64,000 nucleotides of DNA. Origin: Gimesia sp. Its GTDB lineage: Bacteria; Planctomycetota; Planctomycetia; Planctomycetales; Planctomycetaceae. This document shows positions 38,047 to 44,384 of this stretch, one piece after another. A model generated the notes under the pieces. That model was given only the letters and a program-made list of their open reading frames with translations. It was not told the DNA's origin and searched no databases. The stretch is from assembly GCA_002706765.1 (NCBI GenBank), contig PAJV01000037.1:62001-126000 (forward strand), in the 5' to 3' direction. The position numbers and the translations under genes were made by a program. Position 1 is the first letter of the stretch. Each line of letters opens with the position of its first letter.

Positions 38047-38080
38047 TGAGGTCCACCAGACTGATGTCTGGCAGACCTCA
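38047..38080 (-). terminator. hairpin downstream of the 38094 gene
   Basis: TGAGGTC-CA-CCAGAC-TGAT-GTCTGG-CA-GACCTCA: 7 and 6 bp arms around a symmetrical internal loop. It lies 14 nt after the stop of the minus-strand gene. The T-run is weak. Confidence 0.5.
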
Positions 38081-38093
38081 CGCCCCTTTCTGT

Positions 38094-38339
38094 TTATTCG
38101 GGAGACCAATCGAAGTAGAACCTTGGATTGTGCTGGAACTTCAGGCTCCCCTTGGTCCCATTTGATCGACGACGAACAATGATTAGTGGAGCCATGAAGC
38201 CAAGTGGTTCGAACTCCTCTTGCATCTCCTGAGTATCCCACACTTGTCCGTGTTTCTGCTCCAGATCTTCTCGGCTACCCGGTTCGTGGTTGATCTCTTT
38301 AACCATTTCACGACGAATAGATTCGGTTGCGTCTGACAT
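38094..38339 (-). CDS. small conserved accessory protein
   Basis: 81 residues with AGGAG 7 nt before the ATG at 38339. Charged N-terminus (SDATESIRREMVKEIN), then VWDTQEMQEEFEPLGFMAPLIIVRR and KGSLKFQHNPRFYFDW. It resembles a conserved family of plasmid/ICE small proteins of unknown function. GGACC lies 52 nt upstream of the start. Confidence 0.65.
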   Translation of the reverse strand: MSDATESIRREMVKEINHEPGSREDLEQKHGQVWDTQEMQEEFEPLGFMAPLIIVRRRSNGTKGSLKFQHNPRFYFDWSPE

Positions 38340-38399
38340 CTGTTTTCTCCTGTGATGAAAGTGAATTGTGTTTGACTTGTTGAATCAGTCGGGTCCAAA

Positions 38400-38693
38400 T
38401 CAGTATTCGTCAGGTAGCAAAATCGTAGTAGCGGATCGGTCGGCCTCTGTAATGATCCAGATCTTTGTACCGTCGTTGAGAAGATAACTGGAAAAAATTC
38501 TTCCCCCATTTTCCACAGCATCTAAGTTTGTTTGCTGATCCTCTCCGCAGAGTTCACCTTGATCGAGGACAACGTGTCTTTGGAGTAACTCCATCGGCGT
38601 CTGTCCATTCGACTCAAGTGCTTCGAGTGCCCCCGGTGTAGCAAGCACTTGAGCGAGCAGGAATCGAGGTTCTTTTTTGTTAGTAGCGACCAT
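38400..38693 (-). CDS. plasmid-related conserved protein
   Basis: 97 residues. ATPGALEALESNGQTPMELLQRH and IWIITEADRSATTILLPDEY are strongly conserved features of a small family common on plasmids and integrative elements, function unknown. AAGGAG lies 5 nt before the ATG at 38693. GGACC lies 45 nt upstream, and the leader contains a TTGTTGA-GGTA-TCAACAA hairpin. Confidence 0.7.
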   Translation of the reverse strand: MVATNKKEPRFLLAQVLATPGALEALESNGQTPMELLQRHVVLDQGELCGEDQQTNLDAVENGGRIFSSYLLNDGTKIWIITEADRSATTILLPDEY

Positions 38694-38772
38694 TGTTTCT
38701 CCTTAAGTTGAAGTGTTTTGTTGATACCTCAACAAGCCGGTCCGGTCACATCTACCAACCAAGACATAAACG

Positions 38773-38804
38773 AAAAGAGCCGAGACATCCGTGTCCCGGC
38801 TCTT
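38773..38804 (-). terminator. intrinsic terminator between two module genes
   Basis: On the minus strand AAGAGCCG-GGACA-CGGA-TGTCT-CGGCTCTT is followed by TT; 13 pairs with one G-U, loop CGGA. It lies 6 nt after the stop of the 135-residue gene (stop at 38810). Confidence 0.7.
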
Positions 38805-38809
38805 CAATA

Positions 38810-39217
38810 TTACGCTTCAATTTCATCCCAACAAAACTCAGTTGGATTTACACCTTCCGGCGGCAATCCTTCACCATAATAGGTACAGGGAAACGGAATT
38901 GTACTTCCATCCTGACCGTGGATCATCAGGTGATCCAGATCGAGTACTTGTCCACTGGGGCCGTAATGCCGATCCTCTTCGGGATAGTCGCCGAGGTCCG
39001 CTTCTTCAACGACGATGTGATGTCCATGCTTTTCGTTGTCCGCCAGTTCGTCGATGGCGTCCGACATGCTGTCGGCTTCGACGATGAGGTATGTTGATGA
39101 GTAACCGAGACCAATCTCGATCAGCCAAGTCTTGCCGAACCAGTCGCCGGGATTGATGACCGGCATGTCTTTGAGTTCACGCTCGTGAAATGTTCCGTTT
39201 GCAGTAATCGTAACCAT
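38810..39217 (-). CDS. accessory protein of unknown function
   Basis: 135 residues, acidic. WFGKTWLIEIGLGYSSTYLIVEADSMSDAIDELADNE and a C-terminal GVNPTEFCWDEIEA resemble conserved hypothetical proteins of plasmid accessory modules. The start codon lies inside a 12-bp inverted repeat, and GGACC lies 46 nt upstream. A good terminator follows. Confidence 0.65.
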   Translation of the reverse strand: MVTITANGTFHERELKDMPVINPGDWFGKTWLIEIGLGYSSTYLIVEADSMSDAIDELADNEKHGHHIVVEEADLGDYPEEDRHYGPSGQVLDLDHLMIHGQDGSTIPFPCTYYGEGLPPEGVNPTEFCWDEIEA

Positions 39218-39259
39218 GATCGTGTCTCCTAATACTTGGGTTATAGAACACGATCATGG
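39214..39259 (-). promoter_or_regulatory. 12-bp inverted repeat covering the start codon of the 39217 gene
   Basis: Arms CCATGATCGTGT (39214-39225) and ACACGATCATGG (39248-39259) are perfect complements. The ATG is in one arm and AGGAG is in the loop beside it. An RNA stem here would hide the start. Confidence 0.6.
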
Positions 39260-39270
39260 CTGTGGTCCGA

Positions 39271-42565: not shown

Positions 42566-42586
42566 GGTCTGTTCCCTTTATTGGAA

Positions 42587-42612
42587 GACACCGACCGAAG
42601 TTGGTCGGTGTC
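42587..42612 (-). terminator. hairpin between the 42630 and 42338 genes
   Basis: GACACCGACC (42587-42596) pairs perfectly with GGTCGGTGTC (42603-42612) over a 6-nt loop. It follows the stop of the 42630 gene by 17 nt; the T-run after it on the minus strand is short. Confidence 0.5.
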
Positions 42613-42629
42613 GTTAGCCGATGGTCCAC

Positions 42630-43247
42630 TTAATCGTCTTCAATGATCCGCTCAAAGAGAGCGTCCATCGCCCGTCGCAATGAATCCTCAGACGGGTATC
42701 CGCCTTGATCGCTCGTGTTTTCCAGTTCATTACATTCATGGTCCGAGAGCCAACTATAAACTTCGTATTGCCAGTCTTCCGGCTGGTCATATTCATCACG
42801 CAGCCGCCAAGCAGCATCAACGATATTCTCGACCGTCGCTTCCAGTTCTCGGTTGCTGAAGTCTTCCTCATCAAGGATCGGATATGCCTCCAGCGACTCC
42901 ATCAGTTTGTGTAAGGTCCGGAATGCCTCTGTGATCTCGCCATCCCGAACGACTCGCAAACTGAATCCGTCGATGTACCCGACAGCCCAATGATTATGAG
43001 ATTCTTCAACCACATCAGGATCATCTCCTTCAGTGAATGGCTCCAATGCTTTCCTGATCTGTTCTGAGTTGGACTGGTCCAGAAGTCCGCTATCCCGGTG
43101 ATGTGTGTAATGGATCATCCAATCTTCTGGGTGATCGAGGTCACCCTCCCTCCACCACGAAAAGCAGTCAAAAGTCTGCCAATTACCGGCAGCATCCATT
43201 GCTGCTTCTTCAATTGTCATTTCGGCAATATTTGTAGTTGTCGTCAT
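42630..43247 (-). CDS. acidic accessory protein of unknown function
   Basis: 205 residues, very acidic, with many Trp. WWREGDLDHPEDWMIHYTHHRDSGLLDQSNSEQI and DGFSLRVVRDGEITEAFRTL resemble conserved hypothetical proteins of plasmids and integrative elements. CGGAG lies 8 nt before the ATG; GGACC lies 48 nt upstream. No catalytic motif seen. Confidence 0.6.
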   Translation of the reverse strand: MTTTTNIAEMTIEEAAMDAAGNWQTFDCFSWWREGDLDHPEDWMIHYTHHRDSGLLDQSNSEQIRKALEPFTEGDDPDVVEESHNHWAVGYIDGFSLRVVRDGEITEAFRTLHKLMESLEAYPILDEEDFSNRELEATVENIVDAAWRLRDEYDQPEDWQYEVYSWLSDHECNELENTSDQGGYPSEDSLRRAMDALFERIIEDD

Positions 43248-43324
43248 CTGTTGATCTCCGTTTCGAGTTGGTTGTCGTTACGAAGAATCGTGTATGGTCC
43301 GGCAATTGGATGGTGTGAAAACAG

Positions 43325-43357
43325 AAAGAGCCAGCGATGGTGAGTCGCTGGCTCTTT
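43325..43357 (-). terminator. intrinsic terminator after ardC
   Basis: A perfect 13-bp stem AAAGAGCCAGCGA/TCGCTGGCTCTTT with a 7-nt loop and T-rich flank (TTTCTGTTTT on the minus strand), 7 nt after the ardC stop. Confidence 0.75.
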
Positions 43358-43363
43358 CTTAGT

Positions 43364-44266
43364 TTAAACTGAAATCGGTTCAGTCTTACGACTAAAACTC
43401 AGAATGTAGTCAGCCGCTTTGTTTGCAGCAGTAGACGCTTTGAAAATGAAGCGAGGATCGTTCTCAAGACTTTTAAGCCACGAAGCGAGATATGCCTGTG
43501 TGTTGGTTAGATCTTCGCTCTGAGGAATCTGCAATTCACTACACATGAAAGCCGCTGCTATCTCTGCTCGTAATTCCCCTTCCGCATAATTTCCAGTCCA
43601 TTCACACCGTTTCTCAGACCAGTGTGCCAGTTCATGTAGTACGGTCGAGTAATATTCTTTCTCTGTCGCAAATCGGTGCTTAGACACCATCTGAATATGG
43701 TCCGTATTTAATGAGTAATAGCATTTATTTCCACCGAATCGAATGTCTGCTTTAGTAGCTTGAATAGCGATTTCTGCTGGTTCATAATCGCAAAATTCAT
43801 CGTTTTTCGTTTCCGGCTCGATGTCGATGAGGTGCCGCAAATGGTCCGGCAACTCAACTTGTTCGGCGTTGAATACGCTATACTGTTTGAGCATGGCGAA
43901 TTCAACTTCGGTTTCTTCGCCGGTAACCGGATCTTGTTTCGTCTTCTTGATCGGAGCGTAGAAGATTACCCCCGCTCCAAATTCTCCCGGCTTAATGTGG
44001 TCCGGTCGATGTAAGACTTTCGCCCCCAGATCTTGCCATTGTTTATAGGTCGCATACCACTTACATGAAAAGTCATGTTCCTGACGATGAAGTTCGAGCA
44101 GGAGCGGATTAATTCCCCGATATGGATTATTGCTGACTACATTTGTGGGTGCCCCACAGTTGGGTGACGTGTTCCAAGGTTTACGCCAAGGAATTGTTCC
44201 TGCCTTCAGGGACTCAACGATTTTGTTTGTGATTTCGGTCTGAATCTGCTTTGAGGTTTTAGCCAT
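43364..44266 (-). CDS. ardC: ArdC-like antirestriction protein (ssDNA-binding domain plus metallopeptidase domain)
   Basis: 300 residues. The N-terminal DUF1738 domain (IPWRKPWNTSPNCGAPTNVVSNNPYRGIN, WYATYKQWQDLGAKV) binds single-stranded DNA. The C-terminal part has a zincin motif, YSTVLHELAHWSEKRCEW, followed by a downstream Glu (GELRAEIAAAFMCSEL). ArdC proteins carried on conjugative plasmids protect incoming DNA from host restriction. AGGAG lies in the loop of an inverted repeat that covers the start codon; GGACC is 46 nt upstream. A clear terminator follows. Confidence 0.87.
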   Translation of the reverse strand: MAKTSKQIQTEITNKIVESLKAGTIPWRKPWNTSPNCGAPTNVVSNNPYRGINPLLLELHRQEHDFSCKWYATYKQWQDLGAKVLHRPDHIKPGEFGAGVIFYAPIKKTKQDPVTGEETEVEFAMLKQYSVFNAEQVELPDHLRHLIDIEPETKNDEFCDYEPAEIAIQATKADIRFGGNKCYYSLNTDHIQMVSKHRFATEKEYYSTVLHELAHWSEKRCEWTGNYAEGELRAEIAAAFMCSELQIPQSEDLTNTQAYLASWLKSLENDPRFIFKASTAANKAADYILSFSRKTEPISV

Positions 44267-44306
44267 TGTCTTTCTCCTGTTAGAAGGTTGGTTATTGACA
44301 ATGGCT
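44261..44306 (-). promoter_or_regulatory. 10-bp inverted repeat covering the ardC start codon
   Basis: Minus-strand AGCCATTGTC and GACAATGGCT are perfect complements (44297-44306 and 44261-44270). The second arm contains the ATG and second codon; AGGAG is in the loop. Confidence 0.6.
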
Positions 44307-44384
44307 TTAGATGGTCCGAGTATTTTAGTTACAATTTTGTAACTGAGATTATGAGATCGATTAGATATAGGAATGGAGATGTCT

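What the first reader, a model, noticed from the sequence alone, without database searches (positions are those of the whole stretch)
38050..44317. Strand-polarised GGTCC marks the whole mobile module
By eye, GGTCC occurs 29 times on the + strand in 6.3 kb and the reverse orientation (GGACC) once. At random each would be expected about six times. Eight or more copies extend to TGGTCCG. The enrichment starts and stops at the borders of the gene block with recombinase, RuvB-like helicase and ArdC, and is seen both inside and between genes. A polar short motif can steer DNA processing (Chi- or KOPS-like) or mark DNA. All genes in the block run on the minus strand, so codon bias could explain some but not the intergenic copies.
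Basis: partly seen in the sequence, partly recalled or inferred. Interest (0 to 1): 0.78.

Follow-up and report, generated by a model that had tools for sequence, protein, structure and literature searches.

The report
Element-specific signal word before each gene
A small mobile DNA element in a planctomycete bacterium carries a short directional DNA word about 50 bases before many of its genes and at intervals inside them, and several related elements use a different word in the same place, which points to a private regulatory code of each element.

Summary
Observation confirmed: 29 GGTCC and 1 GGACC in 38050-44317; the rest of the window is balanced (25/34). Codon usage does not explain it: over seven related elements gene-strand GGACC is 128 in genes versus 51 after codon shuffling, GGTCC 2 versus 27; ordinary window genes show no such bias.

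The Chi/KOPS idea is not supported. The word is a start-associated, bipartite signal, GGACC-N12-YRT, about 50 nt before ATG: 37 of 67 genes (3 expected), 33 of 33 leaders in six gene families but 0 of 20 in the RuvB-HTH-recombinase trio. Further evenly spaced copies lie inside genes. Several relatives lacking GGACC carry other words there (TGACACCCGCTTG, AGTGTACCC, GAGGCACCCCCTAGT, GTACCTT); others showed none. The window's own genome holds elements with two words. An element with a different trio has GGACC in that trio too.

Best reading: an element-specific, orientation-dependent control site of an ArdC-containing establishment-type regulon, working like mycobacteriophage stoperators or pLS20 EGeRS1.

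The parts
38050..44317 (-). Island with the GGACC word on the gene (minus) strand: 29 copies, 1 reverse
44313..44317 (-). Leader word of the ArdC gene, 51 nt before ATG
43296..43300 (-). Leader word of the 205-aa gene, 53 nt before ATG, just after a terminator-like hairpin (43323-43359)
42623..42627 (-). Leader word of the 75-aa gene, 62 nt before ATG (outside the -58..-48 band)
42309..42313 (-). Leader word of the RuvB-like gene, 34 nt before ATG (non-canonical distance)
40778..40782 (-). Word between the HTH and recombinase genes, about 94-103 nt before the recombinase ATG (non-canonical distance)
39740..39744 (-). Leader word of the 139-aa gene, 54 nt before ATG
39264..39268 (-). Leader word of the 135-aa gene, 51 nt before ATG
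38739..38743 (-). Leader word of the 97-aa gene, 50 nt before ATG
38392..38396 (-). Leader word of the 81-aa gene, 57 nt before ATG
38050..38054 (-). Last copy, beyond the 81-aa gene at the left end of the island
38154..44003 (-). Set of 19 in-gene copies: 38154, 38995, 39481, 39561, 40074, 40268, 40585, 41285, 41504, 41616, 41817, 42131, 42402, 42740, 42915, 43076, 43699, 43843, 43999
   Evidence: above codon-shuffle expectation
42300..42304 (+). The only reverse copy; could pair with the word at 42309 (GGACCaatgGGTCC on the gene strand)
43364..44266 (-). ArdC-type anti-restriction gene (ArdcN + MPTase-PolyVal)
42630..43247 (-). 205-aa gene, PHROG 4313 (unknown function)
42338..42565 (-). 75-aa basic helical-hairpin protein; in 7 of 7 GGACC elements and none of 8 other-word loci (one of these, L039, is a partial contig); candidate reader
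41344..42279 (-). RuvB-like AAA+ gene with winged helix
40835..41317 (-). HTH gene (weak excisionase-type matches), homology-anchored ATG at 41299
39747..40688 (-). Tyrosine recombinase (Xer/integron-integrase-like, below NCBIfam cut-offs)
39271..39690 (-). 139-aa gene; family found only in GGACC elements (6 of 7; the seventh contig ends before it)
38810..39217 (-). 135-aa gene, shared by elements of other words
38400..38693 (-). 97-aa gene, shared by elements of other words
38094..38339 (-). 81-aa gene, shared by elements of other words
39212..39261 (-). Predicted leader hairpin of the 135-aa gene that covers RBS and start; stem kept in relatives, some pairs through two-sided changes
39697..39739 (-). 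Predicted leader hairpin of the 139-aa gene over the RBS

Best explanation
The polar GGTCC is the minus-strand word GGACC, the core of a bipartite gene-oriented control site (about T-n-A-T-C-GGACC-N12-YRT) that an integrative element of planctomycetes places ~50 nt before many of its genes and repeats inside them. The genes (ArdC, small unknown proteins, RuvB-like, HTH, recombinase) look like an establishment regulon: needed briefly on entry into a new cell, shut afterwards. The most likely action is that an element-encoded factor binds the site (two contacts, hence two halves) and stops or gates the RNA polymerase that comes from upstream, in one orientation only, like phage stoperators or pLS20 EGeRS1. 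Several element families have their own word, so an element would control itself and not its neighbours. Shown: position, orientation, two halves, in-gene enrichment, avoidance of the reverse word, different words in relatives. Inferred: binding by an element protein, the effect on transcription, the establishment role.
For: Placement: 37 of 67 homology-anchored genes in seven elements have GGACC at -58..-48, 3.0 expected from its density; by family ArdC 6/6, 205-aa 7/7, 139-aa 6/6, 135-aa 5/5, 97-aa 6/6, 81-aa 3/3; it is the top 5-mer there. Second half: YRT at exactly +17 in 26 of 40 leader copies (0-6 at the other offsets from 6 to 35) and 15 of 125 in-gene copies (0-10 at the others). In genes: 128 vs 51.4 +/- 6.2 (maximum 70 in 500 shuffles); reverse word 2 vs 26.8 +/- 4.6. 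GGACC is the best conserved of 123 5-mers with four G/C letters among orthologous genes, 42% vs mean 16% (amino-acid constraint not removed). Element code: other words at the same place in L040, L039, L062, L066, L064, L071, L012, L008; two words in one genome; the different trio of L079 has 8 GGACC and 1 GGTCC in 2454 bp. Precedent: stoperators are asymmetric, oriented with transcription, fail when reversed, and their sequence varies with the repressor (PMC6550527 passages; PMC9283540 passages); EGeRS1 ahead of ardC blocks readthrough in native orientation and not in reverse, and is repeated ahead of five operons (PMC8708921 passages and section 13).
Against: No reader protein is identified: of 12 protein families compared, none that is shared between word classes separates same-word from different-word pairs. 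The trio lacks the canonical copy: 0 of 20 RuvB, HTH and recombinase starts at -58..-48 (two HTH starts have it at -59), and the 75-aa gene 1 of 6. A plain stoperator gives no reason to avoid reverse copies. The near-constant distance to ATG is more natural for a site acting on translation or at a promoter. A 5-bp core is short for a repressor in a 7.9-Mb genome. L063, L065, L067, L069, L070, L074 and L011 showed no clear word. That the word turns with the gene rests on few copies of a sister class: ATG 44-61 nt downstream for 3 of 5 minority-orientation words in G317 but 0 of 3 in G439 (random rate 0.10). No expression data.
Confidence: 0.4

Rival explanations
1. Each word is the core of an element-specific promoter (GGACC and YRT as its two boxes), so that every gene has its own start.
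For: Bipartite at fixed spacing; transcription start after YRT would give a short leader with RBS; avoidance of reverse words fits avoidance of antisense promoters; a word sits between a terminator-like hairpin and the next gene; words also precede an apparently non-coding stretch in L040, L071, L064.
Against: 11-12 nt between the boxes fits no sigma-factor spacing known to me (recalled); no TATAAT-like box in the leader columns; predicted leader hairpins begin 5-11 nt after the word's first base in the 135-aa, 139-aa and some ArdC leaders, so those mRNAs seem to start before it; many copies inside genes; no sigma-factor family found in the block.
Confidence: 0.2
2. The word acts in RNA: an element-encoded RNA-binding factor or the ribosome reads GGACC ~50 nt before the start to control translation, or RNA polymerase carrying an antitermination-type factor is loaded there and again within genes.
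For: Fixed distance to ATG in six gene families; predicted hairpins over RBS/ATG in some leaders; even spacing along genes fits repeated loading; GGUCC in the mRNA would pair with and hide the word, fitting its avoidance; the basic 75-aa protein is found only in GGACC elements.
Against: Words also precede apparently non-coding stretches; no significant structure match for the 75-aa or 139-aa protein and no family match.
Confidence: 0.25
3. Chi- or KOPS-like mark that steers DNA processing, transfer or repair of the element.
For: Polar, in genes and between them, reverse word avoided; evenly spread.
Against: Placement at start codons; in the GGCACCC class, minority-orientation words of G317 stand before genes of that strand, though not in G439.
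Confidence: 0.05
4. Evasion of a type III restriction system, which needs two opposed sites: all sites point one way, as recalled for EcoP15I sites of phage T7.
For: Reverse word avoided; a type III system is among the cargo of the G317 region, which belongs to another word class.
Against: Evasion predicts few sites, not 2.5-fold enrichment, and no fixed position before genes; words differ between elements of one host.
Confidence: 0.03
5. Codon or amino-acid composition of a shared ancestral gene block.
For: Some in-gene copies sit at the same aligned residues in many relatives, such as the P-loop Gly-Pro of the RuvB-like gene.
Against: Codon shuffles, intergenic copies, the different trio of L079, 72-75% identical trio with 2 copies in L040.
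Confidence: 0.02

Closest known systems
Stoperators of cluster A mycobacteriophages (L5, Bxb1, TipsytheTRex)
   Same: Many short asymmetric sites in one orientation relative to transcription, in short intergenic gaps; sequence differs between relatives; recognised by two DNA-binding domains (papers seen as passages)
   Different: Here ~4 sites per kb instead of some 20-30 per phage genome, often fixed at ~50 nt before ATG, evenly repeated inside genes, reverse word avoided; no repressor found; hosts are planctomycetes
EGeRS1/EGeRS2 establishment-gene regulatory sequences of pLS20/p576 plasmids
   Same: Repeated cis sequence ahead of ardC and other putative establishment genes that vary between plasmids; EGeRS1 blocks readthrough in native orientation and not in reverse; related plasmids use different sequences (passages and one section read)
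   Different: EGeRS1 is 400-600 bp and ahead of operons; here a ~20-bp bipartite word ahead of single genes and within them
Start-Associated Sequences (SAS/ESAS) of cluster K mycobacteriophages
   Same: Asymmetric, one orientation, tied to start codons of non-structural genes of different families; inverted repeats in some (passages)
   Different: SAS contains the RBS, 3-7 bp from the start; here the word is ~50 nt upstream of a separate RBS
Chi / KOPS / Ter-type polar DNA motifs (recalled)
   Same: Short, polar, found in genes and between
   Different: Those follow replication or host chromosome direction; here position follows genes of one element

Membership tests
Stoperator system | Asymmetric sites oriented with transcription, mainly intergenic | tested here: inconclusive
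   221 vs 6 along the gene strand in seven islands; but most copies lie inside genes (19 of 29 in the window), although density per bp is higher between genes
Stoperator system | Element-encoded repressor that binds the site | tested here: inconclusive
   Of 12 families compared, none shared between classes follows the word; the 75-aa and 139-aa proteins occur only in GGACC elements; no homology to a repressor found for them
Stoperator system | Site sequence differs between relatives together with the repressor | tested here: inconclusive
   Words differ between elements; the repressor side is unknown
Stoperator system | Halts transcription elongation in one orientation | not testable with these tools
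   needs reporter or RNA-seq
SAS of cluster K phages | 13-bp consensus containing the RBS within 3-7 bp of the start | tested here: not met
   word starts ~50 nt before ATG, RBS separate
EGeRS of pLS20-type plasmids | Repeated sequence ahead of ardC and other putative establishment genes | tested here: met
   ArdC leaders 6 of 6 and leaders of five small-gene families 27 of 27 carry the word at -58..-48; that these genes serve establishment is inferred
EGeRS of pLS20-type plasmids | 400-600 bp structured region (EGeRS1) or promoter with Reg operator (EGeRS2) | tested here: not met
   leader is ~50 nt; no consistent sigma-70-like promoter in the seven ArdC upstream regions scored
Chi/KOPS-like mark | Orientation set by element or replichore strand, not by gene strand | tested here: inconclusive
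   Only testable in a sister word class, since the conserved GGACC-class genes run one way: minority-orientation GGCACCC words have an ATG 44-61 nt downstream in 3 of 5 (G317) and 0 of 3 (G439), random rate 0.10
Type III restriction evasion | Sites at or below chance and in one orientation | tested here: not met
   forward word 2.5 times the codon-shuffle expectation

The most novel reading that the evidence does not exclude
The word is a self-tag written along the whole element, coding sequence included: an element-encoded factor reads it on its own transcripts or transcribing polymerase at gene starts and about every 220 bp, so the element distinguishes self from host and from sister elements in the same cell; words change in concert across the genes of an element, and captured genes are re-lettered to the resident word.
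Probability: 0.25. Interest if true: 0.9.

Novelty: new variant of a known kind. Interest (0 to 1): 0.72.

Why it matters
It shows a compact mobile element whose genes, including the protein-coding text, are written around a private directional word, with sister elements using different words in the same place and even in the same genome. That gives a natural system to ask how a regulator and dozens of its sites change specificity together, and how an element keeps control of captured genes. It also gives planctomycete mobile elements a searchable signature. In the searches made (listings, with only the pLS20 paper opened) I found no paper describing it; the library holds open-licence papers only.

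Tried and rejected
Searching by the RuvB-like protein alone first suggested that most relatives lack the bias (L002-L006, L008-L012); some of these turned out to carry other words (L008, L012; L009 and L010 weakly). Rejected: codon bias; a plain T7-type primase site (lead from memory; start-codon placement unexplained, no primase family in the block); a sequence-specific RNase site (in-gene enrichment); cassette att sites of the recombinase (word does not follow the recombinase); leader hairpins as the common signal (strong in the 135-aa, 139-aa and 75-aa leaders, mean z near 0 in the 97-aa and 81-aa leaders).

Structure models of the 75-aa (pLDDT 71) and 139-aa (pLDDT 69) proteins gave no significant PDB match. 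Rfam found nothing in L071 6900-7300 or in L040, L062, L066, L012, L079, L036.

Weak points found on the way. The k-mer test covered 24 loci; alone, GGACC in L007, L036 and L038 (scores -5.5, -4.4, -4.4) is not above the noise in word-less loci (up to -5.9), so these rest; L039 (4 genes), L072 (2) and L068 (0 on plus, 6 on minus, no clear word) had few genes, and L039 was seen by direct pattern search. The largest-gap test of even spacing is weaker than the CV test: P below 0.05 in 3 of 7 elements. TGACACCCGCTTG occurs as scattered copies in 34 of 170 family genomes, so that word alone does not prove an element. Of the eight reverse copies listed, 3 are followed by an open frame in their direction. 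Intergenic numbers (11 copies, 1036 bp) left out the 81-aa gene; one search corrects them to 10 copies in 790 bp. For the 135-aa leader hairpin, RNAalifold's covariation term was about zero on seven leaders including two of another word class, though 5 of 12 pairs have two-sided changes. GGACC-only clusters smaller than six elements also exist; several are other frames of the known genes.
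Full report
OBSERVATION. GGTCC occurs 29 times and GGACC once in 38050-44317; TGGTCCG 7 times. The rest of the window has 25 and 34. On the gene (minus) strand the word is GGACC. 19 copies are in the ten genes and 10 in the 790 bp between them. Gaps are 80-507 bp with CV 0.44, more even than any of 20000 random placements.

IT IS NOT CODON USAGE. Codon shuffling of nine block genes gives 7.2 +/- 2.3 against 18. Over seven elements it gives 51.4 +/- 6.2 against 128, and for the reverse word 26.8 +/- 4.6 against 2. 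Window genes outside the block (14 plus, 29 minus strand) show no such bias: GGACC 6 vs 11.7 and 10 vs 14.4, GGTCC 5 vs 8.9 and 15 vs 12.4.

RELATIVES. A viral contig (L007) with a 71% identical RuvB-like gene has 57 GGACC and 1 GGTCC on the gene strand over the matching block. A scan of genome contigs gave six loci, of which four (L035-L038, among them Rhodopirellula sallentina) have the polarity and two (L039, L040) do not. A search with an alignment of six 75-aa proteins added L079, from another family, with 30 versus 2. Of eight loci examined for polar 5-mers, GGACC ranks first in six and not in L039 and L040. Pooled over the seven islands the count is 221 versus 6.

WHERE IT SITS. With starts fixed by homology, 37 of 67 genes have GGACC at -58..-48, 3.0 expected from its density. 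The pattern is sharp by family: ArdC 6/6, 205-aa 7/7, 139-aa 6/6, 135-aa 5/5, 97-aa 6/6, 81-aa 3/3, but RuvB 0/7, HTH 0/7, recombinase 0/6 and 75-aa 1/6; of eight genes seen in one element each, 3 have it. A second half, YRT, lies exactly 17 nt after the first G in 26 of 40 leader copies, and in 15 of 125 in-gene copies, more than at any other offset from 6 to 35. With leader copies held fixed, the other copies are still more evenly spread than random by CV at P 0.0024 or less in six of seven elements (L038 P 0.056); by largest gap, P is below 0.05 in three. Among orthologous genes GGACC is the most conserved of 123 comparable 5-mers, 42% against a mean of 16%, without correction for amino-acid constraint. 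Some in-gene copies turn over between relatives, others stay.

OTHER ELEMENTS, OTHER WORDS. L040 and L039, whose RuvB-HTH-recombinase genes are about as close to the window's as those of L007 and L037, carry TGACACCCGCTTG or ACACCCGCTTG (core ACACCCGC 14/0 and 5/0; 11 of 14 and 3 of 5 followed by a start codon of an open frame 28-79 nt on). L062 and L066 carry AGTGTACCC (TGTACCC 6/1 and 7/0; 6 of 6 and 5 of 7). L064 and L071 carry GAGGCACCCCCTAGT (GGCACCC 12/2 and 13/1; 10 of 12 and 9 of 13). L012, in the window's own genome, carries GTACCTT (6/0; 4 of 6), and L008 TTGTACC (6/2; 5 of 6). In the window's genome the five exact copies of the extended L012 word lie on contig C13; two one-mismatch copies lie elsewhere. 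Thus one genome holds elements with two words. Of 24 loci tested by k-mer enrichment, L063, L065, L067, L069, L070, L074 and L011 gave no clear word, and L009 and L010 were weak.

THE WORD FOLLOWS THE RESIDENT ELEMENT. L079 has a RuvB-like gene only 36% and an HTH gene 32% identical to the window's, yet its trio carries 8 GGACC and 1 GGTCC in 2454 bp. In L040 a 72-75% identical trio has 2 GGACC. The 135-aa gene, 71-75% identical between GGACC elements and L040, has GGACC ahead of it in the window and ACACCCGC in L040. Of 12 protein families compared, none shared between word classes separates same-word from different-word pairs. Among clusters present in at least six elements, only the 75-aa family (7 of 7) and the 139-aa family (6 of 7, the seventh contig being cut) are confined to GGACC elements.

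ORIENTATION. In L064 two reverse words stand 64 and 54 nt before genes of the other strand; L062, L071 and L008 show back-to-back pairs at one place each. In the 69-kb stretch of G317, an ATG of an open frame follows 44-61 nt after 3 of 5 plus words and 12 of 16 minus words; in 67 kb of G439 after 9 of 17 plus and 0 of 3 minus words; the random rate is 0.09-0.10. The nine exact GGCACCCCCTAGT copies of the 7.6-Mb genome G317 all lie within C31:288284-332034, which ends next to a tmRNA gene. So in G317 the word goes with the gene strand; the evidence is thin and comes from a sister class, because the conserved genes of the GGACC class run one way.

RNA FEATURES. Leaders of the 135-aa, 139-aa and 75-aa genes are predicted to fold into hairpins, the first two over the RBS or start; in the 135-aa leader 5 of 12 pairs show two-sided changes among seven elements, with an overall covariation term near zero. 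Leaders of the 97-aa and 81-aa genes do not fold better than shuffles, so hairpins are not the common signal. In L040, L071 and L064 a word precedes an apparently non-coding stretch of roughly 215 nt after ArdC, without an Rfam match in L071 and L040.

MECHANISM. Position before starts, one orientation, two contact points, different words in relatives and the ArdC context match two known ways of working: stoperators (PMC6550527, PMC9283540; passages) and EGeRS1 of pLS20 (PMC8708921; passages and section 13). I therefore favour an element-specific, orientation-dependent control site that keeps establishment-type genes shut or gated. A promoter or an RNA-level signal remain serious rivals: the fixed distance to ATG and the avoidance of reverse words are not explained by a plain stoperator, and the trio's own starts lack the canonical copy.

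VERDICT. Observation confirmed; DNA-processing interpretation not supported; real, recurrent in six relatives and very unlikely without selection. New variant of a known kind.

Noticed in passing
window 24240-28893 (minus strand): Lamassu-like defence cluster: matches to LmuB (25575-27476), LmuC (27473-28021) and HamA-type DUF1837 (28018-28893), with a further 421-aa gene beside it that matched nothing in PADLOC.
   Followed up: partly
L064 and L090 (G317:C31, ~307-321 kb): Defence-type genes between word-bearing genes: DrmD/SNF2-like helicase, type III methyltransferase and restriction enzyme, AAA protein, weak PLD-like protein; region ends at a tmRNA gene.
   Followed up: partly
L040 8511-8720; L071 6986-7215; L064 12030-12237 (minus strand): Apparently non-coding stretch after ArdC, similar between L071 and L064 and in part in L040, that starts right after the word; no Rfam match for L071 and L040.
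   Followed up: partly
window 44323-44338: Palindrome GTTACAAAATTGTAAC just upstream of the ArdC leader word at the right edge of the island; possible operator or junction (position read by eye).
   Followed up: no
L007 10851-11472: The 139-aa gene homologue appears split by a frame change.
   Followed up: no
L074 (viral contig): Distant 75-aa homologue (45%) in a contig without the GGACC bias but with strongly polar TGCTGCT/TTATGCT 7-mers.
   Followed up: no
window 52600-55914: Three adjacent genes that read like Sel1-type repeat proteins (judged from the translations only).
   Followed up: no
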